From positions 251,444 to 315,443 of the forward strand of contig CALXWX010000001.1 in NCBI GenBank assembly GCA_944392565.1: DNA of 64,000 nucleotides. The letters run 5' to 3'. Source of the stretch: an uncultured Alphaproteobacteria bacterium (GTDB taxonomy: Bacteria; Pseudomonadota; Alphaproteobacteria; Rs-D84). Position 1 is the first letter of the stretch. The number at the start of each line of letters is the position of its first letter. A model generated the notes under the pieces. It was not told the DNA's origin. It ran no database searches and saw nothing but the letters and a program-made list of their open reading frames with translations. Positions 13,144-57,489 of this stretch are shown one piece after another. Made by a program: the position numbers and the translations under genes.

Positions 13144-13524
13144 ATGAGATTTAAATACCTGGTTATACTACTGACATTATCGGCATGCGCATCCGTAAAT
13201 CGGGGCAGTATTGATGACGCCACAATTTTAAACTGGGAAAATGAATCCGTAACAATGGAACAATTTGTCCGTGATCACAAGGCATGCCTGGGCATTGACA
13301 AACCATCATACATGCCGCGTTCACGCATTTCTAAACTGTTATCCCCGAACCAAAGCAGTATTATGCCAGACTGGGATGGATTATGGGTAACATTCCAATC
13401 AAATGAATACCGCGATGTTGGGCAACGGGCATTATTATCTGTACCACGCAATACAACATCAAAATCGGTTGGCGCATACCGTAAATGCATGTTCCGGCGG
13501 GGCTATTTACTGCGCGCCAGTTAA
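13144..13524 (+). CDS. Small lipoprotein of unknown function
   Basis: A 126-residue protein with lipobox TLSAC (Cys 15). The mature part contains VRDHKACL and a closing VGAYRKCMFRRGY, a pair of cysteines spaced as in several short alphaproteobacterial lipoproteins whose final segment reads YxxCM. No enzymatic motif. Transcribed from its own predicted leaderless promoter, 50 bp ahead of ftsQ, which has its own promoter as well. Confidence 0.65.
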   Translation: MRFKYLVILLTLSACASVNRGSIDDATILNWENESVTMEQFVRDHKACLGIDKPSYMPRSRISKLLSPNQSSIMPDWDGLWVTFQSNEYRDVGQRALLSVPRNTTSKSVGAYRKCMFRRGYLLRAS

Positions 13525-13537
13525 AAATTTTGTCTGC

Positions 13538-13566
13538 TTTCCAATTAAAATATTTTATGATATAAT
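13538..13566 (+). promoter_or_regulatory. Promoter for a leaderless ftsQ transcript
   Basis: TTTCCA (13538-13543), 17-bp spacer, TATAAT (13561-13566); ATG 13574 lies seven bases past the -10 box. Confidence 0.6.
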
Positions 13567-13573
13567 TGCACAC

Positions 13574-14254
13574 ATGAAACGCAGCATTTGGTTTTGGCTA
13601 TATTTTGTTATTGCCATTATATTGGCGGTATATTTTGCAACACGCATTGTCATGACATATATGAACCGTGGGGAAATTGCACATGTACGCCGCATATCAA
13701 TATCTGCGGACGGTCCCAAAAAAGATTTAACATCTGTTGCCACTGCGGCGGCGGTTGCCCCGGGTACAAATGCATTCCGCATCAGTCTGGACACCATAAA
13801 CGCCCGCGTTTCCGCGGTACCCGGTGTACGCAATTGCGCCATACGCCGCACACCAAACGGAAATTTATCTGTACGCGTTGAATTATACCAGGCAATTGCC
13901 CAATGGACCGATGGCATAAATTTTTTTCCATTATCTGCGGATGGAACAATTATAAATCGCCCAACAGATGCACGCCCCAGCGGCACTGTTGTATTTCGCG
14001 GTGAATTACCCCCAGATATATCGGAAATAACAAATACTGCACAAAGTATGATTAACAATCTGGATTATATCGAATGGATCGAAGGGCGCCGCTGGAACAT
14101 TCACACAAACACCGGAATAACTGTCATGTTGCCAGAAAATAATCCAACAGACGCAATTGCCAGTTTATTGGTATTGGATAAAAATCATGGAATATTATCA
14201 AAACAAATCAAAGTAATTGACATGCGCGACAGTGCAAGAATATTGGTAAAATAA
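13574..14254 (+). CDS. ftsQ: Cell division protein FtsQ
   Basis: Bitopic inner-membrane protein that bridges early and late divisome components. 226 residues: short cytoplasmic tail MKRS, one membrane helix (about 5-25), a POTRA-like domain (SISADGPKKDLTSVATAAAV through VPGVRNCAIRRTPNGNLSVRVELYQAIAQW), and a beta domain with the typical PLSADGTIIN. The frame is open further upstream but I start at ATG 13574 because of the membrane helix and the -10 box. Followed eight bases later by ftsA. The usual murB/ddl neighbours and ftsZ are absent here, so the division cluster is broken up. Confidence 0.85.
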   Translation: MKRSIWFWLYFVIAIILAVYFATRIVMTYMNRGEIAHVRRISISADGPKKDLTSVATAAAVAPGTNAFRISLDTINARVSAVPGVRNCAIRRTPNGNLSVRVELYQAIAQWTDGINFFPLSADGTIINRPTDARPSGTVVFRGELPPDISEITNTAQSMINNLDYIEWIEGRRWNIHTNTGITVMLPENNPTDAIASLLVLDKNHGILSKQIKVIDMRDSARILVK

Positions 14255-14262
14255 AAACAATA

Positions 14263-16041
14263 ATGAACCTGGGGGATTCAACTTTTTTATGTCTGGATGT
14301 CGGCGCACATTATGTACGCGGCATTGCACATCATGTACTGGGCGGACGAATTGTGCAATCTGCGATGCATACTGTTGACAGTTTTGACACCGTATTTGCA
14401 TTAAAATCGGTAATTGACGAACTGGAACAGCAAATTGGTTCGCACTTTGATTCTGCGTATATTACCGGCGATTTTGGTCAATCAGAATTTGAAATGGTTG
14501 CAAAAAACACGATATGGCACGGTGAACATAAAATAACTGCGTCCGACATCCGCGCCCAGATTTCACAAATTACACCACCCGATGGGTATTTTCCAATGCA
14601 CATATTTCCATTGCGATATGACACGCCCACCGCACGAAATATGTTTTCACCAATTGGTCATACTGACCGACAACTAATATCTGCATTTGGTGCAATATTT
14701 TATTCATACAAACAAATTGATGAATTAAATTCAAACCTGCGCCATGCACACATTCAACCAGACGCATTTTACGACCCACAATTCTTGCAAAACGCCGTTT
14801 TCCGCCAACAGAAAGAAACAACAATGTTTATTGATTTTGGTGCCCGTTTTACCAGTGCATCTATCTGGATGGATCGCGGACCTGTGTGGCACGCAAAAAT
14901 TCCTATTGGCGGCACAGATATAACAAATGACATATCCGAAAAATTAAACATTGATTTTGATGATGCAGATCGAATCAAACGCAATATTGCTGGATTAATG
15001 CCACGCGAAATGGACAGATTTACACCAGCTGATACCGCATACGATTTTTCACGCGCGGATGTAAATGATATTATATTACCACACATTGTCGATATATGCG
15101 CCCGCATCAAAGATGCATCAAATGCGGCATTTTCAAAATACAAACCATCGATAATAATGATATCTGGTGGCGGTGCCGAAATTGATGGCATTGATGAATT
15201 TATAGAAAATGCATTTTCAATACCTGTAAAGAATAATCATTCTGATGCATCTGTTCGTGCATTATCAACATACATATGGAATTGTGAATCAAAGCATCGC
15301 AATAAATACGCAAATCGACGCGAACGCATTGAACAATTCAGTAATCGCATAATGTCTTTATTTCACCGGCGTCCACGCCATCGCCAGCAATTTATCCCAA
15401 TAATGCCCAGCACATTGTGTTTCAACATGAAAAGTCCGACAACATATTCCATGTTTCGTGCCGGCGGAATATCAATGATACATGTTGACATAATGGACGG
15501 ATTTTATGTCGACAGAATCGCGGGCAGTATCGCGGAATTAAAATACATCCGCGCCCATACAAATGCGCATCTGCATGTACATTTAATGACGGAAAGTCCA
15601 ACCGTCTGGGCAAATGACGCAATTGCCGCCGGCGCCGATACAGTTATAATGTCAACAAACACATCTGGTCTGCGTGCGGCAATTCGCGCGGTACGCGCCG
15701 CATCAAAACGTGCGGGGGTTGCATTGAATCCTGAATCATCGGTCGCAATATTGAAACCAATATTGCGCGAAATCGATGAAGTAATGATAATGACGGTTAC
15801 CCCCGGCGCAGCGGGTCAAGAATTTAACGATGCATGCCTGCACAAAATATCCGTGCTGGCGGCAACACGCAAAAAATATGGATTAAAATATTTAATTTCT
15901 GTTGATGGCGGCATAAATGCTGATACGGCACAAAAATGCTGGGCGGCGGGTGCAGACATGCTGGTCAGTGGTTCATACCTGGCGCGCAGTAATGATTTCC
16001 CATTGGCGGTGCAAAGTCTGTTGCGAAAATCAGAAAATTAA
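14263..16041 (+). CDS. FtsA fused to ribulose-phosphate 3-epimerase
   Basis: One uninterrupted 592-codon frame with two domains. Residues 1-370 are FtsA, the actin-like tether of FtsZ: LCLDVGAHYVRG (phosphate 1), TTMFIDFGARFTSASIW (phosphate 2), IIMISGGGAEIDGIDEF (adenosine loop), and a basic amphipathic stretch near 350-372 that resembles the membrane-targeting helix normally at the very C-terminus. Residues 378-592 are Rpe of the pentose phosphate pathway: IMPSTLCFN, IHVDIMDGF, HVHLM and SVDGGI keep the usual metal ligands (His, Asp, His, Asp), while the loop after MDG and the VTPGAAGQEF segment deviate from the usual VNPGFGGQ. No stop, Shine-Dalgarno or clear second start lies between. ftsZ does not follow; tsaE converges three bases away. 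Confidence 0.82.
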   Translation: MNLGDSTFLCLDVGAHYVRGIAHHVLGGRIVQSAMHTVDSFDTVFALKSVIDELEQQIGSHFDSAYITGDFGQSEFEMVAKNTIWHGEHKITASDIRAQISQITPPDGYFPMHIFPLRYDTPTARNMFSPIGHTDRQLISAFGAIFYSYKQIDELNSNLRHAHIQPDAFYDPQFLQNAVFRQQKETTMFIDFGARFTSASIWMDRGPVWHAKIPIGGTDITNDISEKLNIDFDDADRIKRNIAGLMPREMDRFTPADTAYDFSRADVNDIILPHIVDICARIKDASNAAFSKYKPSIIMISGGGAEIDGIDEFIENAFSIPVKNNHSDASVRALSTYIWNCESKHRNKYANRRERIEQFSNRIMSLFHRRPRHRQQFIPIMPSTLCFNMKSPTTYSMFRAGGISMIHVDIMDGFYVDRIAGSIAELKYIRAHTNAHLHVHLMTESPTVWANDAIAAGADTVIMSTNTSGLRAAIRAVRAASKRAGVALNPESSVAILKPILREIDEVMIMTVTPGAAGQEFNDACLHKISVLAATRKKYGLKYLISVDGGINADTAQKCWAAGADMLVSGSYLARSNDFPLAVQSLLRKSEN

Positions 16042-33095: not shown

Positions 33096-34169
33096 TTATG
33101 TCAGGGCGCTGGTAATTTGGTCTTGCATCTGGAAAGTACCCAGCACGACCCATGCAATAATCGCCGATACCAATAAAATGCCAATACTATTTAATGCATT
33201 TGATACAGATTCCATTTTACGCACAGATTCTTCCAGATAATCATTTGCCACCCGCCCCAGGTTTTCATCAAACCCATTCATATCGGCATATATTGCCAAA
33301 TCGCCAATTATTTCTGAATTCGGAAAATCGCGTCCCGTACTGTTTAACGCCGCCCCCAGATTTGCGCCATTTGCGATATAGTGCAATGTTTCTTCCAGTA
33401 TATCACGCAGGTATTTATTTGAATTATCCGCCAGCATACGCATTGCATCTGGTATTGTAATACCGGCGGCAACCATTGACGACAAACTCATCAACCAGCC
33501 CACAGACATTTGAATTTTATAAACATTCCATGGTGGCAACTTATCAAATTTTGCACGCAACCGCCCCGACCAATTTGGTAAACTGATACCGATAATAGCA
33601 CACAGTGCAACAAACACCCCCAAAATAATATACCAATACTGTATTGAAAATTCAGACAGCCATATCAGCGAACGCGCCATACCACGCCACACCATACTAT
33701 CACCGGCAATTTCTGCCAATGGCGGGACCAGATAAATCCCCACCAACATAATTATACCAAATGTCAACAACAGCAAGAATAACGGATATGCAATCGCACT
33801 TACCATTGCGCGGCGTATACGCTGGGTACCGGTAACAACCCGGCTGACATTTTCCAGCGCAACAACCAAGTCAGACAAATTTCCCGATGTCACCAACAAT
33901 GTTTCATCTGGTGGCACCCAACCGCGTGTGGCATCAGAAAAACTCATCCCACGTTCCAGGTTTTTTTGCCATTCACGCATAACGATTGCAAATGGTTCGT
34001 TTGGCTTTTTTCCACCATGCGATTCAATCATTTCCAAACGATTTAACGCATCCATCAACGAAAAGTCATTTCGCAACAGCGATGCCAATTTTCGTGCTGT
34101 TGCCATACGCTTTTCCGTATCCATACGAAAAACCAACCGGGCATACCATAAATCCATTTTTGATGTCAT
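33096..34169 (-). CDS. Type IVB pilus inner-membrane platform protein (PilR/GspF-like)
   Basis: 357 residues with two copies of the GspF/T2SF domain: LASLLRNDFSLMDALNRLE and VGWLMSLSSMVAAGITIPDAMRMLADNS, each followed by membrane helices (about 120-165 and near the C-terminus). It is the platform on which the assembly ATPase acts to extract pilins. I start at ATG 34169, two bases after the ATPase stop. Order ATPase-PilR matches R64 pilQ-pilR. A GCGCCCTG/CAGGGCGC hairpin (33086-33109) spans the stop. Confidence 0.82.
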   Translation of the reverse strand: MTSKMDLWYARLVFRMDTEKRMATARKLASLLRNDFSLMDALNRLEMIESHGGKKPNEPFAIVMREWQKNLERGMSFSDATRGWVPPDETLLVTSGNLSDLVVALENVSRVVTGTQRIRRAMVSAIAYPLFLLLLTFGIIMLVGIYLVPPLAEIAGDSMVWRGMARSLIWLSEFSIQYWYIILGVFVALCAIIGISLPNWSGRLRAKFDKLPPWNVYKIQMSVGWLMSLSSMVAAGITIPDAMRMLADNSNKYLRDILEETLHYIANGANLGAALNSTGRDFPNSEIIGDLAIYADMNGFDENLGRVANDYLEESVRKMESVSNALNSIGILLVSAIIAWVVLGTFQMQDQITSALT

Positions 34170-34170
34170 A

Positions 34171-35808
34171 TCAATACACCCCCGGTCTGTCCAGCAATCC
34201 AACCCAACGTTCCAGTTCGTCTACACCAATAATACCCTGTAACATTAATGATGTGGCGGCCTCTTTCAATGTGCGTCCATCCATTTCTTCCAACCAATAC
34301 TTAACCGCCCCATCGGTATTACCAGACAATGCCAAACGCAAAAATTCACTGTTTGTAATAATAATTTCACCGGCTTTTATCCGCCCCAGTGTTCCAGTCC
34401 CCTTGCATTCTTCGCATCCCGCGCCACGAATATACACCTGGTGCAAACCCAATTCACCAAACGCATCCATGACACGACGATACGCCGGATTTTCTGGGTG
34501 GTCAATTAATCTTTCACGACAATATGGACACAACTTTTTAAACAGACGCATAGATATCAGTCCACGCATCAGTGTTTCTTCTTTCAGTTTAAATGCCTCT
34601 ATCCCCAAATCTAATAATCTGGTCAATGCCGCCATTGCCGAATTTGCGTGCAGTGTGGTCCACACATTATGCCCCGACAACGCACCACGCACCGTTAATT
34701 GCGCCGCCGCCAGTGTACGAATTTCCCCCACCATCAATGTATCTGGGTCACTACGCAATGCCGCTGCTAATGCTTCGGTATATTTTTCTTCGCGTTGCTC
34801 TTCATTCATTGTGTTAACAACAGGCATCTGGTGCGCGCCGAATATTTTTTGTTCGACCGGATCTTCGACCGTAATCATATTTATTTCATAGTGATGTTCT
34901 TTTAACATCAACGACATATTACGCACTAATGTGGTCGACTTACCCGAACTGGTTGGACCAGCAACAATAACCAACCCCGTTGGAAACGAACGCAAACGCA
35001 TCAACAGTTTCTGTTCATATTCGCCAAACTCTTGTTCTGTTTTAATCCCCTCAGACGGATTATCATACAGCAATCGCATAACAACATACCGACTGCCGAA
35101 TGCGATTGGATTAAATTGCATACGAATACTTAAAATTCCACGCGGCAGATATAAATCCTTGGTCCCGCGCAGTGGGGTTCGCCCATCTTTCTGCGCCGAT
35201 TGATATTCATTCTGGGCATAGTTTGCATTTGAAATATCCGATGATGCAAACGCCGCGCGAACAAAAGATTCCCCCCACCCCGCATTATATTCCAATACTG
35301 GTTGCATACTGCCATCAATACGAAAATATATTGTTGTTTGATCAGCAACCTCTATATGAATATCTGATACCTTTTGTGCAGCAGCCTTGGCGATAATATC
35401 GACAAAATCCTTCTGCATTTGGTTATCATAATCTTGGCGTGAACGGGTTGCGCCACCCAATCTGCTTTCATACGCTTTATAAATACTGGAAACCAGACCC
35501 AAATCCGAATAAAACGGTATACGCATTGGTCGTGCGCGTTTTTTTAATAAATCCAAGAATGCCAACACCCGCCCGTCATAACGATGTGTACGCGATATTA
35601 TAATTTCACCACCTGAAAAATATGCAACCAGACCTTGTGTATCCTTGGGCAGTTCTTGTTCCGCCCCTGTCGCGGTCAGCAATCTATTACCATTTGAAAA
35701 CAAATAATCAACAATATCTTTGTTATCTGCATTTTCCAAGCCCGCCGGGATTGACGGTTTTAATGCAACTGGCACATTATTCAAAATATTGTTTTCTGTT
35801 TCATTCAT
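34171..35808 (-). CDS. Type IVB pilus assembly ATPase (PilQ/GspE-like)
   Basis: 545 residues, hexameric ATPase energising pilus assembly. Walker A VAGPTSSGKSTTLVRN (about residue 286), Asp box and Walker B in ITVEDPVEQ and TLMVGEIRT, and His box in LSGHNVWTTLHANS. The zinc site appears as CPYCRE (about 424) and CEECKGTG, the four cysteines found in GspE/PilB. QKDGRTPLRGTKDLYLPRGILSIRM is an N2-domain feature. Located between pilR-like and pilP-like genes with small gaps. Confidence 0.9.
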   Translation of the reverse strand: MNETENNILNNVPVALKPSIPAGLENADNKDIVDYLFSNGNRLLTATGAEQELPKDTQGLVAYFSGGEIIISRTHRYDGRVLAFLDLLKKRARPMRIPFYSDLGLVSSIYKAYESRLGGATRSRQDYDNQMQKDFVDIIAKAAAQKVSDIHIEVADQTTIYFRIDGSMQPVLEYNAGWGESFVRAAFASSDISNANYAQNEYQSAQKDGRTPLRGTKDLYLPRGILSIRMQFNPIAFGSRYVVMRLLYDNPSEGIKTEQEFGEYEQKLLMRLRSFPTGLVIVAGPTSSGKSTTLVRNMSLMLKEHHYEINMITVEDPVEQKIFGAHQMPVVNTMNEEQREEKYTEALAAALRSDPDTLMVGEIRTLAAAQLTVRGALSGHNVWTTLHANSAMAALTRLLDLGIEAFKLKEETLMRGLISMRLFKKLCPYCRERLIDHPENPAYRRVMDAFGELGLHQVYIRGAGCEECKGTGTLGRIKAGEIIITNSEFLRLALSGNTDGAVKYWLEEMDGRTLKEAATSLMLQGIIGVDELERWVGLLDRPGVY

Positions 35809-35825
35809 ATATAAATGCCCGCAAT

Positions 35826-36542
35826 TTATTTAGATTTTGTAATATTTAATGTCTGGGTATCTGTACCATCTGTAAACACAATACCTTCGTCCAGCGATAT
35901 AGATTTCACAGTATATCCATCAACAACTTTGCCAACACTGATTGTCTTGTTCTGTCCTGTATCTAAATCTTCAATTGTTGCCTGTAATTGTGTACCCGCC
36001 CCAACAACATTAATCAGACGATATTTTTCACCAAAATTAATTTTTGATCCCGCATCATCTGTATCTGATGATGTTGTTTGCACTTTATTTACCGCCCCAG
36101 ATTTTAATTCTTCTGTTTGCGCGGCTAATTGTTCTTTTTCGCGTTCCAAACGCGCGGCTTCAGCTTCCAGTTCAGCCTGGGCATTTTCCAATTCTTGCTG
36201 CTGCTGTTCTGCGCGTCCAGATAAAGTGTCAATTTCCATATGCAGTTTTATTTTTTCCGCCGCTAATCTGTCCAGTTCCAAATCCAATTGTGCGCGTTCT
36301 TTTTCCAATTCCATTAAAACTTTTTCTTGTTCCAATGTGGTTATTTGCTGAAACAACGACCCATCCATATCATATGCTGCAACAGCATCAGCATTTGCCG
36401 TCTCTAATTCCATAGCAATATCTTCTTGGGCAATTTCACTGTCAACATCATTTGCGGTTGCATCTGCTGCATACAATGGAACCGGCACAGAAATCATCCC
36501 CGCCATAAAAAATACAACAAACAATTTTAATTTATTTTGCAT
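35826..36542 (-). CDS. Type IVB pilus biogenesis protein PilP-like
   Basis: 238 residues: signal peptide cleaved near LYAAD, a long coiled coil (about 60-155, Glu/Leu/Gln-rich), and a C-terminal beta domain YRLINVVGAGTQLQATIEDLDTGQNKTISVGKVVDGYTVKSISLDEGIVFTDG that follows the PilP pattern. Its ATG overlaps the pilO stop by 11 bases. In R64 pili PilP connects inner-membrane PilO to the secretin PilN. The coiled coil is longer than usual for the family. Confidence 0.72.
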   Translation of the reverse strand: MQNKLKLFVVFFMAGMISVPVPLYAADATANDVDSEIAQEDIAMELETANADAVAAYDMDGSLFQQITTLEQEKVLMELEKERAQLDLELDRLAAEKIKLHMEIDTLSGRAEQQQQELENAQAELEAEAARLEREKEQLAAQTEELKSGAVNKVQTTSSDTDDAGSKINFGEKYRLINVVGAGTQLQATIEDLDTGQNKTISVGKVVDGYTVKSISLDEGIVFTDGTDTQTLNITKSK

Positions 36543-37794
36543 AGATAATCACCTCATAGTTCCATGTGCGTGATGACGCATTCCATGCACAACGCGTCAT
36601 ATACACACCGCCAAAATCGTCAAAAATGCGCATAAATTGCGTTGGAACTAATTTTGATTCCGCCGCAACTTCTACCACATTCAGATATACCGTATCAACG
36701 CCATTTGTTAATGTATCCACAACCATCTGGGCATCTGCCGGTGTATCAATTCCCTGAAACGCTGTCATAACCGCACGCAGTACTGTTTCAACATCGCGTT
36801 CATCAATTGATGCAATTGTCGGTACATTTGGCAATTTTGCCCGAACAGTCAACGAATTTTCAGATTCTTGTTGCACAAAAGACGCCGGCATTAATTCTGT
36901 TGCCATTAAATAAAAATCATCCAGTGTTCCATAATCGCGCACAAATTGAACATTTGCATATTCTTCACCACATTCCACCGATGTTTGTACCCACCCGGTT
37001 ATCGGCTGCATTAAAAATCCCATTGCCTGATAACAAACCTGGGCGCGAATAATTGGATCTGGCAAATATTCATACGGCAAAACAATTGGCTGGGGTGGCG
37101 TTGGTTTATCAATATCAAACGCTGCATCTAATTCTTTGTTTTTTTCCTGTACCTGCTTTTCCAGTTCTGCGGCTAATTCAGGATTATTAATTTCTGAAAT
37201 TTCAGATGTTGTTGCAATTTGTTCCAATGGTTCACGAAAGAACCACATTGCCCCCAACACAAACATTAACACCAATACCACCGAAATTATGCCGGCACCA
37301 ATACGACTGATTGGGCGCAATGGCGCGCGTACGGCGCGCATAATTAAATCTGATATATTGCGTTCCACAGCGCGTGGCATACCCCACGGCGACGGTGCAA
37401 ATAACGCACCCCAATCTGGTATTTCAGATAACTTAAAATATTCTGCGCGGGCATCTTCTTCTTTATCAAAAATTTTATCTTCCAGTATTACGCCATTACG
37501 AACCGCAACCAAATAAAATAATTTATCTATTTGAAACACCGCCAAAAAAGACGAATATTCCCCCAGCGCATCTGTAACCGCCGCCGCGGCGCTGTCCATA
37601 CCACTGCGATGCCCGGCGCGTTTAGAACCCAAACCAACCATTGCGCGGTATTCTGTGTATAAATTCAGCTTTTTATCGACACTGCGCGCCAAAGTGCGTG
37701 CATATGTTCGCGCAACATACCCCGCCCCCGTTGGTTGCCAAAACAATCCAACGGCATATTTTTTTCTGTTAATGGTTATAACCTGACCCGACAA
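36532..37794 (-). CDS. Type IVB pilus accessory protein PilO2-like
   Basis: 420 residues. The cytoplasmic N-terminus carries the PilO2 pattern FWQPTGAGYVARTYARTLA and FLAVFQIDKLFYLVAVRNGVILEDKIF; a single membrane helix lies at about 163-183 (GAGIISVVLVLMFVLGAMWFF); a coiled coil and a periplasmic domain with paired cysteines (RAQVCYQAM, SVECGEEY, TRCAWN) follow. First gene of the pilO-pilP-pilQ-pilR operon. Pilin genes (pilS, pilV) are not in the window. Confidence 0.8.
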   Translation of the reverse strand: MSGQVITINRKKYAVGLFWQPTGAGYVARTYARTLARSVDKKLNLYTEYRAMVGLGSKRAGHRSGMDSAAAAVTDALGEYSSFLAVFQIDKLFYLVAVRNGVILEDKIFDKEEDARAEYFKLSEIPDWGALFAPSPWGMPRAVERNISDLIMRAVRAPLRPISRIGAGIISVVLVLMFVLGAMWFFREPLEQIATTSEISEINNPELAAELEKQVQEKNKELDAAFDIDKPTPPQPIVLPYEYLPDPIIRAQVCYQAMGFLMQPITGWVQTSVECGEEYANVQFVRDYGTLDDFYLMATELMPASFVQQESENSLTVRAKLPNVPTIASIDERDVETVLRAVMTAFQGIDTPADAQMVVDTLTNGVDTVYLNVVEVAAESKLVPTQFMRIFDDFGGVYMTRCAWNASSRTWNYEVIIYAK

Positions 37795-44361: not shown

Positions 44362-46770
44362 TTATAAATTACCCGCCCCCTGCTTTTTTAAATATTCTGC
44401 AACAAAATTATTACCATATTGCTTGTATAATTCTTCGGCCAGTAATACAGATGAACGCCCTGATTCAAACAGCCGCAACATATTCCCCAATCCACCCAAT
44501 TCCGTATTTAAAATAACAGATTCCCCATTAACTGGGCGGGATAATAATACTGCGCGTTTCAGGTTTGGATATGCCTTGCCCTGGATAAATGCCATTTCCA
44601 GCGGATTTAAATTCCAATGCGCATAATCATTCACATCTGCGGCAGGATTGCGGAAAAACAAAACTGTTTGTGCCTGACCACGAACGACATCACCAATCCC
44701 CAGTTTATCCAAAACATTTGCGCGCTGGAATGCGACCATATATGCCTGGCGATTTTTACGCCCTTCTTGTAAACCTGTTATAAAATTATCACGGAACATT
44801 TTGTTTTCCAGCATTGGTGCCGTTTCATCAATCATAATCAATGACGGATTTCCCCCAGATACCGTAATATTATTAATTCTGTGTAATATATATGATATAA
44901 CCGCCGGCGCCAAGACTTCGTCTTGCAATATTTCTGTAAAATCAAATGTTGTTAATCTGGAATTTAAATCCAGTGTATCAGAATCCTCATTAAATATATC
45001 GCCATATTGTAATGGGTCAATCCACTTTTTTAATTCCGGACGCATTTTTCCTGCGGATGAAAAACAACTCTGCCACAGATTTTTTAACAATCTGTCTTTT
45101 TCTTGTAAATAATCAAAATTAACCGACACCGCGCGCGCAATTTCATCGGCAGAATTTGCATCAGATTGCCCGGTAATCATTGCAAACCACCGGCGCAAGA
45201 ACGCACGATTTTCCGCCGTATCCGGCATTTTTAACGGGTTCAAGTGCGTTTGAAATGCATCCTGATCTTTTTCTTTGCCATGCATGGTTATATATTTACC
45301 GCCAACCGCCAATGTAAATATTTCTGCCCCTTTATTTCTGTCAAAGAAAAATGCTTTTAACCGCGGATGCCGCAATGATTGCGATATCAAGAAACTGAAT
45401 AATGTTGTTTTACCACCACCGGTTGGTCCAATTGTTAATGTATGTGCCACGGCGGCTGGCTTGTCCGATACATGAAACTGGAATTGATATGGTGTACCCT
45501 GGGCGGTTGGGAATATAACCAATGGACCCGGACCCCAATCACTGTTTGCAACCCCGCGTGGCGTACTGGACATCGGAATACTGATTGCCGCTGTCCGCGA
45601 TAACATTTTAAAACTGCGTGGAAAAGTATCAAAACCTGGGATTTGTGCAAACCATGAAACCTTGGCTGCAAAAGTTTCAACAATTGGTGAAACCCCAAAC
45701 GATGCCGCAATTTTATTAAATTCATCGACATATTTTTGTAAATCTTCAACCGTTGCACCAAATATAACAAACAGCGGATAATAGTTAACCAGACTTTGAT
45801 TACCAGAAATATTTTCATCCATTGCACTTTGTGCGGCTGAAATTTGCTCCACAGCCGACGTTTCATCTTTTTCTGTTGTTGCGCGTCGTTGCATAATAGC
45901 TTTTTCAACATCCGCACTGCCCATAATATTAAATCCATTCATACAAATCATTTCTGTTTGTATTGTTGACACAGAATTAAAGAAATCTTCATCTAAATAA
46001 TCTGGCGACATTTTAAACGAAATCATTGCCGCAAAAGATTGCCGCCCCGCCCCAATATAACGAACAATACCATTTTTCAAAAAATCAACATCGTCAACCG
46101 TACTTACCTCGCCTATACGCTGGTCGCAAACGATTGGCGATGGTTTGGTAATTGGTGATAATATACGACCAAAAAACTTTGCCATATTATCCGGCGCATC
46201 ATTACGCAATACCGTTGGTCTGTACGCCGACAATATTGTTTCAATATAATTACCATATTGATTTAATTTTTCACGCGCATTTGCCCCACCAACCGATAAA
46301 ACAATATAATAATTATTTGTAAATATGCGCAATCCCTGCGATTTCCATTTATTATAAATTTGTTGTAAAACCGGTTGATCAAATTCATAGTTTGTATTTT
46401 CATCAACCGCATCGCGTATCATATAAAATCGCAATACAACATTTGGATCACGGATTTGATTAAATAATTGTGTACGCAAATCCAAGAACTTTTCGCGCGT
46501 GGCATCATCTTGCATACTGGTTTGCACCCCATCAACATGATAAACGCGAATAATACTGCCATCGGTCAGTGTCATTGAATTATCATTATACACCGTCTGA
46601 AAAGGCAAATATTGCGAATATCTGGTATATCCAAATTTTGGAAAAATTCGCCGCGTCAGTACTGGGATATACATCAACAGTACAATAAACATAAAAACAA
46701 CCGCCATAACCAGAATTATCGCTGTTAATGGAAATCCGCCACCTGCAAAATATTCAAAAAATCCATTCAT
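44362..46770 (-). CDS. virB4: VirB4-family type IV secretion ATPase
   Basis: 802 residues with an N-terminal membrane helix (about 16-37), unlike soluble VirB4. Walker A GPTGGGKTTLFSF (about residue 450), Walker B SLIMIDETAP, followed by a glutamine-rich motif region GLQEGRKNRQAYMVAFQRA, as in VirB4/TraB ATPases. LRFYMIRDAVDENTNYEFDQ and the FCSSYP-like N-terminal domain are typical. It is directly downstream of virB3, with the HExxH gene following. Confidence 0.88.
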   Translation of the reverse strand: MNGFFEYFAGGGFPLTAIILVMAVVFMFIVLLMYIPVLTRRIFPKFGYTRYSQYLPFQTVYNDNSMTLTDGSIIRVYHVDGVQTSMQDDATREKFLDLRTQLFNQIRDPNVVLRFYMIRDAVDENTNYEFDQPVLQQIYNKWKSQGLRIFTNNYYIVLSVGGANAREKLNQYGNYIETILSAYRPTVLRNDAPDNMAKFFGRILSPITKPSPIVCDQRIGEVSTVDDVDFLKNGIVRYIGAGRQSFAAMISFKMSPDYLDEDFFNSVSTIQTEMICMNGFNIMGSADVEKAIMQRRATTEKDETSAVEQISAAQSAMDENISGNQSLVNYYPLFVIFGATVEDLQKYVDEFNKIAASFGVSPIVETFAAKVSWFAQIPGFDTFPRSFKMLSRTAAISIPMSSTPRGVANSDWGPGPLVIFPTAQGTPYQFQFHVSDKPAAVAHTLTIGPTGGGKTTLFSFLISQSLRHPRLKAFFFDRNKGAEIFTLAVGGKYITMHGKEKDQDAFQTHLNPLKMPDTAENRAFLRRWFAMITGQSDANSADEIARAVSVNFDYLQEKDRLLKNLWQSCFSSAGKMRPELKKWIDPLQYGDIFNEDSDTLDLNSRLTTFDFTEILQDEVLAPAVISYILHRINNITVSGGNPSLIMIDETAPMLENKMFRDNFITGLQEGRKNRQAYMVAFQRANVLDKLGIGDVVRGQAQTVLFFRNPAADVNDYAHWNLNPLEMAFIQGKAYPNLKRAVLLSRPVNGESVILNTELGGLGNMLRLFESGRSSVLLAEELYKQYGNNFVAEYLKKQGAGNL

Positions 46771-53293: not shown

Positions 53294-54439
53294 TTAACTT
53301 CCTTTGGCTGACAATTGCTGATCTTTATGAATATGTGCGTTCTGGCACAGACCGAACCCAAACATCAGTGATAACAGACTGCTGCCGCCAAACGACATCA
53401 GTGGCAATGGTACCCCCACGGTCGGCATCAGTCCCAGAACCATAGAAATATTTATAAAATAATAAATGAAAAAGTTCAACATAAAACCAAAACACACCAG
53501 TTGTCCAAATCGATTACGGCATGTTTTCGCACATCTGAATAATACAACAACAATGAATGTATATAATATAACCAGTGCAAATGCACCAATAAAACCAAAT
53601 TCTTCACCCAACATAGTGAATATAAAATCAGTTTGTTTTTCCGGCAGAAACGATTGTTGTGATTGTGTTCCCGCCATATAACCTTTGCCCAGCATACCAC
53701 CCGAACCAAATGCAATTTTTGCCTGGTTTATTTGATATCCAGCGCCCTGGGCATCATGGTCTGGGTTAATAAAAGTAATAATTCTGTCGCGTTGATAATC
53801 ATGTAAACCACCAAACCATACCAGTGGCGCCGCCATCAATCCCAATATCGCCGCAATAATAAACCATTTTTTTTGTGCGCCAACGATATAGAACATACCA
53901 ACTGTAATCATCCCCAGTGATAATGCAGTACCCAAATCAGGTTGTGCGACTATTAATAAAAAAGGAACCAATAACATTGCCACAGGTACGGCATAATTTT
54001 TAATTTGTGATAATTCCACAGAATTCATCCATGCGAAATATCGTGCCAACGCTAATACCAATGCAATTTTTATTAATTCTGATGGTTGTACATGGAAAAA
54101 TCCCAGATTCAGCCATCTTTGTGCGCCCATACCGGTATGACCAACAAATGTAACCAGAATAATCATAACCAGTGCGATTGCATATATAACATACGCAGAT
54201 TTCACCCATGTTTTGATATTGGTAAATGCCGCGAAAAAGAATACCGCAAATCCCAAACCAATTTTTACCAATTGCGATAATGCAAATGGACGCCATGCAC
54301 CACCACCCGCAGAATATAACACAACAATAGATATTGCCAAAATCAAACACATTGGAATAAACATTGCCCATGAAAAACGGCTAAGTTTTTCTGGAAAACT
54401 CATCATACTTGCATTTGAAACGCGTGTTTGTCGTGCCAT
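53294..54439 (-). CDS. rodA: RodA (SEDS peptidoglycan glycosyltransferase)
   Basis: 381 residues, about ten membrane helices. VQPSELIKIALVLALARYF, AQPDLGTALSLGMI, IFTMLGEEFGFIGAFALVI and PTVGVPLPLMSFGGSSLLS are SEDS landmarks. It polymerises glycan strands with its partner PBP2 (mrdA, upstream and overlapping ATGA). Part of mreC-mreD-mrdA-rodA. Confidence 0.94.
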   Translation of the reverse strand: MARQTRVSNASMMSFPEKLSRFSWAMFIPMCLILAISIVVLYSAGGGAWRPFALSQLVKIGLGFAVFFFAAFTNIKTWVKSAYVIYAIALVMIILVTFVGHTGMGAQRWLNLGFFHVQPSELIKIALVLALARYFAWMNSVELSQIKNYAVPVAMLLVPFLLIVAQPDLGTALSLGMITVGMFYIVGAQKKWFIIAAILGLMAAPLVWFGGLHDYQRDRIITFINPDHDAQGAGYQINQAKIAFGSGGMLGKGYMAGTQSQQSFLPEKQTDFIFTMLGEEFGFIGAFALVILYTFIVVVLFRCAKTCRNRFGQLVCFGFMLNFFIYYFINISMVLGLMPTVGVPLPLMSFGGSSLLSLMFGFGLCQNAHIHKDQQLSAKGS

Positions 54440-56220
54440 TATTTCTTTTTATCCCCCAACAGCGTTTTTATTGTTGCTGCCACTGTGCGCGCCGCCAGAC
54501 CACTGCCCCCGGAATGTTCTGTTATTGCACATACCGCATATTTGGGTTTATTTGTTGGCGCATATCCAACAAATAATCCGTGATTACGCATATTCCATTT
54601 TAATTGTTCGTTGGTCAGTACCCCACTTTCGCGTTCTGCGCGTGAAATACTGCGCACCTGGGCAGTACCGGTTTTTCCACCCATACGCGCGCCATTAACA
54701 TTTATTGCACTGTATGCAGCGGTTCCCCCGGTGCGTGTTACTTGTTCCAGACCCTTTAATACCGCCCGAATATTTTTTTGCTGTAAATTCAGGTTTGCAA
54801 ATTTTGGCGCATCATCTGTCAGAATTAATCGTGGCATAACAACCTTGTTTGATGCACAGCGCGCCATCATTATTGCCAATTGCAGACAATTTGTTAATAT
54901 AAATCCCTGACCAATGCCAGAAATAATTGTATCGCCATGAACCCAATGATATCCGATTTCGCGTTCTTTCCAATATCTGTCGGGGATAACACCCGCCATT
55001 TCGCGCGATAATACACCATCCATATATTTTTGCGTAAATCCCAGCTTGATTGCCATTTCTTTGATAGAATCAATACCAATTTTTAATGCCAATTGATAAA
55101 AATATATATCGCATGAACATTTCAGTGCATCTGCCAGATTAACATGACCATGCCCTTCGGGTTTCCAACAGTGATATCGTCTGTCGCCATAATCCCAATG
55201 CCCTGGACAATAAACTTTTTCATTTGGTGTTATTGCGCCTGATTCCAATGCCGCCAATGCAACAACAATTTTAAATGTCGAACCGGGTGGATACAGACCT
55301 TCGATTGTTTTGTTCATAAACGGTTTCATAAAATCATTACGCAAAGAATTAATATATTCATCACCATCGTCTGTACTAAACATCCCTGGGTCAAAACTGG
55401 GGGTGGAAACCATTGCAAGTATATTACCTGTTTCAATTTCCAGCGCGACGCCACACCCAGCGCGATGTTGCATTAATGCGTCGTACATTGTGCGCTGGGC
55501 ATCTGGATTAATTGTTGTACGCAGGTTATTCCCAATAATTGCCGGGCGAAATTGCGATTTGTCTTCACCAGTTATGCGCCCAACCGCATTCGCAATCATA
55601 ACTGTTTGACCGGGCGTGCCCGCCAATTCATCATTAAACCTTTTTTCCAAGCCCGTAACCCCGGTTGTAAAGAACGGCGCATTTGGTACTGGTTCACTTG
55701 GTGCGCCGACATACCCAAATATTTGTGCGCCTGCCGGTCCCATTTCATAAACGCGTGCAAATCCATCACGCACATGTAATCCAGGAATATTTTTCGCCTG
55801 TAATGCTGCCAATTGCGACCAATCAGAATTTTCGCTGATTAATACTGGCTGAAATGCGCGTTGTTTTTTTATATTGGCATAAATTTTATCAACGCGTTTT
55901 TTTTTCAGCTTTAATTCTGCTGCAACCGTTGATATAACAGAATCAATATCTGTAATTTCTTCTGGGATAATGTAAATTCTGTATGTTGGCGCATCGCGTG
56001 AAATTGTTGCGCCATTTGCCGCCAATATTTTACCGCGTTCTGGCATATTTATTTGGATACGAAATGAATTATTTTCACTTTTTTTCGTGTATTCGCGATA
56101 GTTAAACAATTGCATTTGCAACATGCGCAACACCAGCGCCGATGTTAATATTGCACCCGCGGTTAAAAATAATGCGCTGCGCCGGTCAAAAGTGCGTGCA
56201 ACTTCTTTATCTATCATCAC
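54439..56220 (-). CDS. mrdA: Penicillin-binding protein 2
   Basis: 593 residues, class B PBP, the transpeptidase of lateral wall synthesis. N-terminal membrane helix (about 17-34), pedestal domain with RGKILAANGATISRD, SxxK in PPGSTFKIVVAL, SxN-like CSCDIYFY, and KTGTAQ near residue 508. The SxN is SCD here as in other PBP2s. Overlaps mreD at the start by 14 bases and rodA at the stop. Confidence 0.94.
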   Translation of the reverse strand: MMIDKEVARTFDRRSALFLTAGAILTSALVLRMLQMQLFNYREYTKKSENNSFRIQINMPERGKILAANGATISRDAPTYRIYIIPEEITDIDSVISTVAAELKLKKKRVDKIYANIKKQRAFQPVLISENSDWSQLAALQAKNIPGLHVRDGFARVYEMGPAGAQIFGYVGAPSEPVPNAPFFTTGVTGLEKRFNDELAGTPGQTVMIANAVGRITGEDKSQFRPAIIGNNLRTTINPDAQRTMYDALMQHRAGCGVALEIETGNILAMVSTPSFDPGMFSTDDGDEYINSLRNDFMKPFMNKTIEGLYPPGSTFKIVVALAALESGAITPNEKVYCPGHWDYGDRRYHCWKPEGHGHVNLADALKCSCDIYFYQLALKIGIDSIKEMAIKLGFTQKYMDGVLSREMAGVIPDRYWKEREIGYHWVHGDTIISGIGQGFILTNCLQLAIMMARCASNKVVMPRLILTDDAPKFANLNLQQKNIRAVLKGLEQVTRTGGTAAYSAINVNGARMGGKTGTAQVRSISRAERESGVLTNEQLKWNMRNHGLFVGYAPTNKPKYAVCAITEHSGGSGLAARTVAATIKTLLGDKKK

Positions 56221-56665
56221 ACACCCTTTTGATTAATGCAGTAATTGGAATATATAATGTTGATACCCATGCAAACAGCCATATTGCCCGCATCATATTT
56301 AAAACACTGAACCCAGCCAGTGTTAATATTAATGTTGCAACGCCAAAAAATACCATAAATATGTTTAATGCATTTTTATCTGTACGGGTTAAATCGATGA
56401 AACTTTGAAATCCATTTATTGCATAAAATAAACAATATGCCGCCGTCCAGTATGCCAGTGTATCAAATCTGTAATCTATCAAAAAACAAAACAATGCCGC
56501 AAATGGCGCAAACCATGGCACTGGACGCACAAAAGAACAATAAAAAATCGGAATAATTGCCAGTATACCCGCCGGATTCCAAAACGGCACAGACATCCGC
56601 CACAGTATTATTACTGTTATAAATGGAAATGCGGCGCGTAAAAAATCAATAATACTTTTTTTCAT
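56207..56665 (-). CDS. mreD: Rod shape-determining protein MreD
   Basis: 152 residues, about five membrane helices. PFWNPAGILAIIPIFYCSFVRPVPWFAPFAALFCFLIDYRFDTLAYWTAAYCLFYAI is the MreD core. Overlaps both neighbours by a few bases (mreC stop, mrdA start). Links MreC to the wall-synthesis enzymes. Confidence 0.85.
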   Translation of the reverse strand: MKKSIIDFLRAAFPFITVIILWRMSVPFWNPAGILAIIPIFYCSFVRPVPWFAPFAALFCFLIDYRFDTLAYWTAAYCLFYAINGFQSFIDLTRTDKNALNIFMVFFGVATLILTLAGFSVLNMMRAIWLFAWVSTLYIPITALIKRVCDDR

Positions 56666-57489
56666 TATTCATATTTATTATCTGCATTGTCGAATTGCAA
56701 AATTACGACGCGCGATAATGTTTTTGGTTGGCGTATACGAATATCTGTTTCATTAACTGTTTCGCCAACATATATACCATTTGGCATAACACCGCTGATA
56801 TTACTGGTTATCAATTTTACGCCATCAGATGGTTGAAATTCAGGGTCGCTAAAAAATCCCAGTGTTGGTGTATCAGAACCATTACCGTGCAGAAAACCAT
56901 ACACTTCGGATCCAGCAATTCGCACAGGTATGTTTGTATCAGAATCTGTCAATGCGCGTACGCGTGAAAATTCAGGTGCGGTATCAATTATAACCCCGAC
57001 CAGCATTCCATCTGGGGAAACAACAGCCATACCATTTTCCAGTCCATGCCGGATACCTTTATTTATTAAAAAATTACTGTGATGAAATGCGGTATTATCG
57101 TACATTACATCTGCAATAATTGCATCATGTGGCATATTTTGAACGATATCTAATTCGCGTGATAATTTTTGATTTTCCGCCATTGCGATATCGCACGTGT
57201 TTTTATTTTTTAATGCATCGTCCAGCGCACTGCGCAAACGCGCATTTTCATCGCGCAAATCAGACAATTCACGAATATTTTCGACTGTATTTCCAATTGC
57301 GCGAATTGGCCATGTAATAACATCCCCGACCCAGTTTGCCACCGGCAACACAACATGCGCCAAACCATTCATCAGTGTATAATCTGGTTTGGCAATCATT
57401 ATATATATAAATAATAATGGCAACACCGCCGCCGCAACAGCGGATTTAATAATTGAACGCAATTTGGAAGATAACTTGTTCTGGACCAT
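56665..57489 (-). CDS. mreC: Rod shape-determining protein MreC
   Basis: 274 residues: N-terminal membrane helix (about 17-32), coiled coil (ENIRELSDLRDENARLRSALDDALKNK), and the beta core DVMYDNTAFHHSNFLINKGIRHGLENGMAVVSPDGMLVGVI. First gene of the elongasome operon; mreB is not next to it. Promoter on the minus strand TTGAAT (57526-57521), 17-bp spacer, TAAACT (57503-57498); ATG is eight bases later and there is no Shine-Dalgarno, so the transcript is leaderless. Confidence 0.92.
   Translation of the reverse strand: MVQNKLSSKLRSIIKSAVAAAVLPLLFIYIMIAKPDYTLMNGLAHVVLPVANWVGDVITWPIRAIGNTVENIRELSDLRDENARLRSALDDALKNKNTCDIAMAENQKLSRELDIVQNMPHDAIIADVMYDNTAFHHSNFLINKGIRHGLENGMAVVSPDGMLVGVIIDTAPEFSRVRALTDSDTNIPVRIAGSEVYGFLHGNGSDTPTLGFFSDPEFQPSDGVKLITSNISGVMPNGIYVGETVNETDIRIRQPKTLSRVVILQFDNADNKYE

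What the first reader, a model, noticed from the sequence alone, without database searches (positions are those of the whole stretch)
14263..16041. FtsA fused to ribulose-phosphate 3-epimerase
One frame without stops encodes actin-like FtsA and a complete Rpe with its four metal ligands. FtsA's membrane-targeting helix, normally terminal, is internal near residue 360. A sugar-phosphate enzyme on a divisome protein could tie pentose metabolism to division or be a neutral fusion. I know of no described FtsA-Rpe fusion.
Basis: partly seen in the sequence, partly recalled or inferred. Interest (0 to 1): 0.7.

Follow-up and report, generated by a model that had tools for sequence, protein, structure and literature searches.

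The report
FtsA–epimerase fusion in FtsZ-less bacteria
A whole family of tiny-genome gut bacteria carries its cell-division protein FtsA permanently fused to a sugar-metabolism enzyme, and the same family has lost FtsZ, the protein that normally builds the division ring, so these walled cells must divide in a way not yet described.

Summary
Window 14263-16041 is one unbroken 592-codon frame. It encodes an FtsA-fold protein (residues 1-341), a conserved amphipathic/basic helix (about 343-377) and a complete ribulose-5-phosphate epimerase with all four metal ligands (378-592), the only rpe in the genome. It is not a sequencing error. The genome is a Candidatus Enterousia (family and order Rs-D84, Alphaproteobacteria). 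The same fusion was found in 175 of 183 genomes of the family across all 13 genera: 170 unbroken, 5 cut by contig ends, none interrupted by a stop. Both domains are under strong purifying selection. In sister families ftsA and rpe are separate, overlapping or adjacent genes, so the fusion arose by loss of the ftsA stop or a small frameshift. The unexpected part: FtsZ is missing from all 183 genomes of the family, including a single-contig chromosome, but present in 17 of 18 other members of the order. FtsQ, FtsW, FtsI, an FtsL-like and an FtsN-like protein, MreB, RodA and PBP2 remain in the own genome. Reviewed FtsZ-less bacteria generally lack FtsA too. Best reading: an FtsZ-independent, FtsA-centred divisome whose FtsA also carries the cell's active epimerase. 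Functional coupling between the halves is unproven.

The parts
14263..16041 (+). ftsA-rpe fusion gene, 592 codons plus stop
   Evidence: homologous full-length fusions
14263..15285 (+). FtsA module, residues 1-341 (actin fold with the inserted 1C-type region); phosphate-1 LDVG at 11-14, phosphate-2 DFG at 191-193, adenosine GGG at 302-304
15289..15363 (+). conserved helix, residues 343-367, hydrophobic at 349, 356, 363, 366, 367 and basic at 352, 355, 362; candidate internal membrane-targeting helix
   Evidence: membrane binding is inferred
15364..15393 (+). basic linker between helix and barrel (residues 368-377; low pLDDT at 368-374)
15394..16038 (+). Rpe module, residues 378-592, full TIM barrel; metal ligands H407 (15481-15483), D409 (15487-15489), H440 (15580-15582), D548 (15904-15906)
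15403..15405 (+). internal ATG (Met381), the only candidate for separate initiation of Rpe; not conserved (TTA or GCN in 17 of 56 homologues)
13574..14254 (+). ftsQ directly upstream (FtsQ_DivIB_C); true start probably ATG 13574, inside a longer ORF from 13403
53297..54439 (-). rodA (SEDS glycosyltransferase of the elongasome)
54442..56220 (-). mrdA / PBP2
56668..57489 (-). mreC

Best explanation
The gene encodes a real, ancient bifunctional protein, FtsA-Rpe. It formed on the stem of the family Rs-D84 when the overlapping or adjacent genes ftsA and rpe were joined into one frame, and on the same stem ftsZ was lost. (i) The Rpe half is the cell's only ribulose-5-phosphate epimerase and is very likely active in the reduced, transaldolase-less pentose phosphate pathway. 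(ii) The FtsA half has diverged from FtsZ-partnered FtsA but is still constrained. It most likely binds ATP, sits on the membrane through the now internal amphipathic/basic helix, assembles as an actin-like filament with the FtsN-like protein, and arranges the retained FtsQ/FtsL/FtsW/FtsI septal synthase without an FtsZ ring, with MreB as possible co-organiser. (iii) The Rpe half, whose solved relatives are often oligomers, may add multivalency that cross-links the filaments. Shown here: fusion, conservation, selection, FtsZ absence, retained partners in the own genome, fold. Inferred: membrane binding, polymerisation, FtsZ-free division led by FtsA. Speculative: (iii) and any metabolic signal.
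For: Fusion; 175/183 family genomes have it, 170 unbroken, the other 5 cut at contig ends. Not a start-codon artefact. Both halves under purifying selection: dN/dS 0.05-0.10 (FtsA), 0.04-0.08 (Rpe) against about 0.33 in the junction. Four metal ligands kept in 128/129 and the ATP-site aspartates in 125/129 distinct proteins. Single rpe in the genome; transketolase present; non-oxidative pentose pathway minus transaldolase reported for Rs-D84 (PMC12306168). FtsZ: 0/183 in the family, 17/18 in the rest of the order, with Pfam PF00091 and a profile from the order's own FtsZ at E up to 1 (one chance-like hit, E 0.02, to a C-terminal piece). Retained: FtsQ, FtsW and FtsI, FtsL-like, FtsN-like SPOR protein, MreB, RodA/PBP2/MreC, MraY, MurG. 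Fold. FtsA divergence: 35-69 bits to TIGR01174, against 162-280 in FtsZ-bearing relatives. FtsA-FtsN double filaments align on membrane cylinders without FtsZ in vitro (PMC7613929). Ancestral ftsA-rpe overlap or adjacency.
Against: No expression, localisation or phenotype data exist; the organisms are uncultured. Fusion and FtsZ loss fall on one branch, so their association is a single co-occurrence, not repeated evidence. In genus g42 the FtsA half has lost both ATP-site aspartates, so ATP binding is not needed everywhere. The amphipathic score of the helix is modest (mean z 1.0), and in g38 the helix is largely missing. Relative domain orientation is uncertain (pTM 0.62). MreB could organise division instead, as proposed for Chlamydia.
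Confidence: 0.55

Rival explanations
1. Neutral operon fusion in a shrinking genome: two co-translated neighbours became one chain, both halves keep their old separate jobs, and there is no functional link. FtsA still serves division and the loss of FtsZ is unrelated.
For: ftsA and rpe overlap or abut in sister families (TAATG, ATGA or a short gap); small genomes of about 0.7-1.1 Mb; both halves individually conserved; the junction itself is fast evolving.
Against: Persistence through the whole family without one observed re-split, and strong divergence of the FtsA half relative to sisters, suggest the arrangement is more than tolerated; neither proves coupling.
Confidence: 0.5
2. MreB-led division: as in Chlamydia, MreB and the elongasome drive septal wall synthesis, and the FtsA half is a relic that now mainly anchors Rpe at the membrane.
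For: MreB, RodA, PBP2 and MreC present; MreB directs division in FtsZ-less Chlamydia (literature); FtsA half has diverged, and in g42 lost ATP-site aspartates.
Against: FtsA half has dN/dS 0.05-0.10 and keeps the ATP-site aspartates in 125/129 proteins; FtsW, FtsI, FtsQ and an FtsN-like protein are retained as well; no MreB hit in two high-completeness family genomes, G193 and G213.
Confidence: 0.3
3. Two proteins are made from one frame by internal initiation at ATG 15403 (Met381).
For: ATG in the window and in 31 of 56 homologues; start-like position just before the first barrel strand. Lack of a Shine-Dalgarno is weak evidence here, because only 8 of 19 sampled window genes show one.
Against: 17 of 56 homologues have TTA or GCN there and would have no start; starting at Met381 would cut into the first beta strand (380-383).
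Confidence: 0.04
4. Sequencing or assembly error hides a stop between ftsA and rpe.
For: None found (searched for it across the family).
Against: Same open junction in 170 genomes of the family, most of them separate assemblies of different species, in 13 genera.
Confidence: 0.005

Closest known systems
FtsA of E. coli, Vibrio maritimus and Thermotoga maritima (TIGR01174, PF14450; PDB 7q6d, 7q6f, 1e4g)
   Same: Actin fold with the inserted 1C-type region, nucleotide-site motifs, gene next to ftsQ, C-terminal amphipathic helix
   Different: Shorter (about 365 residues before the linker), 14-18% identity to solved FtsA, 35-69 bits to TIGR01174 (cut-off 175.9), helix internal and followed by Rpe, no FtsZ partner in the genome
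Ribulose-phosphate 3-epimerase (PF00834; PDB 2fli, 1rpx)
   Same: Whole TIM barrel, four metal ligands, phosphate-site glycines; 33-34% identity to 2fli and 1rpx
   Different: N-terminus fused to FtsA; below the strict equivalog cut-off TIGR01163 but above NF004076
FtsZ-less division of Chlamydia, Planctomycetes and Wolbachia supergroup J
   Same: No FtsZ; MreB, RodA and PBP2 kept
   Different: Those groups generally lack FtsA together with FtsZ (PMC10591338 Table 2; PMC12283558, few exceptions); Rs-D84 keeps FtsA, FtsQ, FtsW, FtsI and an FtsN-like protein
Glp, the MoeA-derived divisome protein of Actinobacteria (PMC11733289)
   Same: A metabolic enzyme fold used in the divisome
   Different: Glp is a duplicated, probably inactive paralogue and not a fusion; here it is the only rpe, with intact ligands

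Membership tests
Ribulose-phosphate 3-epimerase | Pfam PF00834 above gathering score | tested here: met
   147 bits against 21.1
Ribulose-phosphate 3-epimerase | Four metal ligands H, D, H, D on the barrel | tested here: met
   H407, D409, H440, D548; kept in 128/129
Ribulose-phosphate 3-epimerase | NCBIfam equivalog TIGR01163 cut-off | tested here: not met
   147.8 against 212.6; subfamily NF004076 met, 173 against 165. Filed as Rpe-type by domain and residues, not as a TIGR01163 equivalog
Ribulose-phosphate 3-epimerase | Epimerase activity | not testable with these tools
   needs enzyme assay or complementation
FtsA | Pfam PF14450 FtsA above gathering score | tested here: met
   51.8 against 31.8 for the window protein; not reached in the divergent L051, 24.6
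FtsA | NCBIfam equivalog TIGR01174 cut-off | tested here: not met
   68.6 against 175.85. It is therefore called FtsA-derived rather than a canonical FtsA
FtsA | FtsA fold with inserted 1C (SHS2) region | tested here: met
   Z 29-32 to FtsA structures, 327-339 residues aligned, above PilM (21-25) and MreB (20-21); PF02491 not detected by sequence
FtsA | Gene next to ftsQ | tested here: met
   FtsQ immediately upstream in the window
FtsA | Amphipathic membrane-targeting helix at the end of the FtsA module | tested here: inconclusive
   conserved amphipathic/basic helix 343-367, modest moment score
FtsA | Binds FtsZ | tested here: not met
   no FtsZ gene in the genome or family
FtsZ-less bacteria | No ftsZ in high-completeness genomes | tested here: met
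   0/183 family genomes, including G100, a single 1,001,484-base contig, and the own genome, 99.3% complete

The most novel reading that the evidence does not exclude
An entire family of peptidoglycan-walled Alphaproteobacteria divides without FtsZ, using an actin-like FtsA filament as the organiser of the septal synthase, with a housekeeping epimerase built into the filament protein as oligomeriser or metabolic sensor.
Probability: 0.35. Interest if true: 0.92.

Novelty: new variant of a known kind. Interest (0 to 1): 0.8.

Why it matters
FtsA is regarded as the partner and membrane anchor of FtsZ, and the reviewed FtsZ-less bacteria generally lack FtsA as well. A large, common gut lineage that lost FtsZ but kept FtsA (fused to an enzyme), FtsQ, FtsW, FtsI and an FtsN-like protein is a natural experiment that separates FtsA's own role from FtsZ's. 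It makes the question 'can FtsA filaments organise septation without FtsZ?' directly testable, and it gives a case of a metabolic enzyme covalently and ancestrally tied to a divisome protein.

Tried and rejected
Sequencing-error origin: rejected, same junction in 170 genomes. ftsZ deleted from between ftsA and rpe (my first idea): rejected, in relatives ftsZ lies elsewhere and rpe abuts ftsA or follows one ABC-type gene. A truncated FtsZ-binding subdomain 2B as a mark of FtsZ loss: rejected, the FtsZ-bearing family f6 has an equally short 2B. Loss of a conserved Arg in the helix after 2B: not used, because f4, which has FtsZ, also lacks it. Missing Shine-Dalgarno as evidence against internal initiation: weak, only 8 of 19 window genes have one. 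Helix amphipathicity by hydrophobic moment: only modest. One- or two-step loss of FtsZ in families f1 and f5: not settled, since f5 is a single long branch. Pfam found no FtsL domain in the FtsL-like protein; only NCBIfam did, below its cut-off. VIA-align is a second look at Foldseek matches, so families absent from it are not excluded.

Full report
OBSERVATION. The frame 14263-16041 (+) is open from ATG to stop for 592 codons. Pfam finds Ribul_P_3_epim (E 5.9e-43, residues 396-573) and FtsA (E 1.3e-13, 189-326), both above curated cut-offs. By sequence the best solved relatives are Rpe structures and Thermotoga FtsA. An AlphaFold model from 47 natural homologues has mean pLDDT 90 and pTM 0.62, so the two folds are secure but their mutual orientation is not. 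Foldseek and VIA-align place residues 4-344 on FtsA structures (Z 29-32, 14-19% identity) and 374-592 on Rpe structures (Z up to 32.5, 1.5 A, 34% identity to 2fli). The four Rpe metal ligands, named by alignment with 1rpx, are H407, D409, H440 and D548.

NOT AN ARTEFACT. The own genome is 939 kb, 99.3% complete, 7 contigs. Homologues with organism names belong to Candidatus Enterousia and unnamed Alphaproteobacteria, mostly from animal guts; Enterousia is in the GTDB order and family Rs-D84 (PMC8035907, PMC12306168). In the first set, 56 of 56 loci are single open frames. In the whole order (201 genomes) a profile of fused proteins matches 175 of 183 genomes of the family, in all 13 genera; 170 are unbroken and 5 are cut by contig ends. 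The 8 without a match are mostly incomplete assemblies. The residue that could serve as a start for a separate Rpe (Met381) is ATG in 31 of 56, TTG or CTG in 8, and TTA or GCN in 17, so it is not a conserved start. No SD-like motif was seen there, but that is weak evidence, since only 8 of 19 sampled window genes show one.

SELECTION AND CONSERVATION. Among 129 distinct fused proteins all four Rpe ligands are kept in 128 (one D to E), and the two ATP-site aspartates of FtsA in 125; the four exceptions are all from genus g42. dN/dS against four close relatives is 0.05-0.10 for the FtsA half and 0.04-0.08 for the Rpe half, against about 0.33 in the junction. The junction holds a conserved helix with hydrophobic positions 349, 356, 363, 366, 367 and basic positions 352, 355, 362, followed by a basic linker (median net charge of the tail +10), running directly into the first barrel strand; its hydrophobic moment is only modestly above shuffles. 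I infer a membrane-targeting helix, as in FtsA, now internal.

ORIGIN. In other families of the order the two genes are separate. In f2, f3 and f6 rpe abuts or overlaps ftsA (for example TAATG or ATGA overlaps, or a short gap with its own GGAGG); in f4 one ABC-type gene lies between. Sister FtsA proteins end in an amphipathic helix such as KVKNWIKEHL. A small frameshift or loss of the stop would give the fusion. A tree of FtsW, FtsI and MreB makes the family monophyletic (100% support) with g42 and g38 branching first; both carry the fusion, so it predates the family's radiation.

FTSZ IS GONE. A family search for PF00091 found nothing in the own genome, although the same search rings in 13 of 14 control genomes. 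Across the order FtsZ was found in 17 genomes, all outside the family; none of the 183 family genomes has it, including G100, a single 1,001,484-base contig matching the length of record OX097180.1, titled chromosome 1. A profile built from the order's own FtsZ proteins at E up to 1 gave one chance-like hit (E 0.02) in the family and E of about 1e-99 or better in the 17. One genome of family f5 (G062) also lacks FtsZ, and FtsA and Rpe matches as well; its position is a long branch, so one or two losses cannot be told apart.

WHAT REMAINS. Window: FtsQ just upstream; RodA, PBP2 and MreC at 53297-57489. Own genome elsewhere: FtsI (L236:8531-10141) with an FtsL-like gene beside it, FtsW between MraY and MurG (L237), a bitopic SPOR protein resembling Caulobacter-type FtsN (below cut-off), three further PBPs, MreB. 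So the wall-synthesis arm of the divisome is kept. FtsA itself has diverged: 35-69 bits to TIGR01174, against 162-280 in FtsZ-bearing relatives.

MECHANISM. Shown: one coding frame, family-wide, both halves constrained, only rpe, no FtsZ, septal synthase kept. Following from established knowledge: E. coli FtsA with the FtsN tail forms double filaments that align across membrane cylinders without FtsZ, FtsA helps activate FtsW, and FtsZ is thought to be the long-range organiser (PMC7613929, PMC10591338). Inferred: FtsA-Rpe filaments, perhaps with MreB, organise the septal synthase here. The Rpe half is probably an active enzyme, since transketolase is present and the pathway minus transaldolase has been reported (PMC12306168). 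That Rpe oligomerisation gives the filaments extra valency, or that sugar phosphate levels tune them, is speculation that the data do not exclude.

COMPARISON. Reviews list FtsZ and FtsA as absent together in Chlamydia, Wolbachia supergroup J and, with few exceptions, Planctomycetes. A metabolic enzyme recruited to the divisome is known in Actinobacteria (Glp, from MoeA), but as a duplicated paralogue. No paper held mentions an FtsA-Rpe fusion, and the one paper on Rs-D84 metabolism does not mention FtsZ. Subscription papers and preprints were largely out of reach.

VERDICT. The fusion is real beyond reasonable doubt. Its larger meaning is the FtsZ-less, FtsA-retaining family. Whether FtsA and Rpe are functionally coupled remains open.

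Noticed in passing
G062 (loci L256, L263): The single genome of family f5 in the same order (93% complete) has no FtsZ, FtsA or Rpe match but keeps FtsW, FtsI, PBP2, RodA and MreB: possibly a second FtsZ-less lineage, without FtsA.
   Followed up: partly
G193 and G213 (family Rs-D84): No MreB match although 99% and 96% complete; if real, FtsZ and MreB are both missing.
   Followed up: no
L216-L219 (genus g42): FtsA half has lost both ATP-site aspartates and part of the C-terminal helix, while the Rpe ligands are kept.
   Followed up: partly
L203 (G215, genus g43): Only fused protein with a changed metal ligand, D409 to E.
   Followed up: no
window 13144-13574: A small lipoprotein-like ORF (13144-13524) overlaps the 5' end of the longest ftsQ ORF; the real ftsQ start is probably ATG 13574.
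   Followed up: partly
window 33099-37794 and 44365-46770: Type II/IV pilus-type genes (T2SSE, T2SSF, PilO-like) and a VirB4-like ATPase in a genome of 0.94 Mb.
   Followed up: no
L213 end (G185:C57): The contig end switches from the fusion to unrelated sequence inside one frame, probably a chimeric assembly.
   Followed up: no
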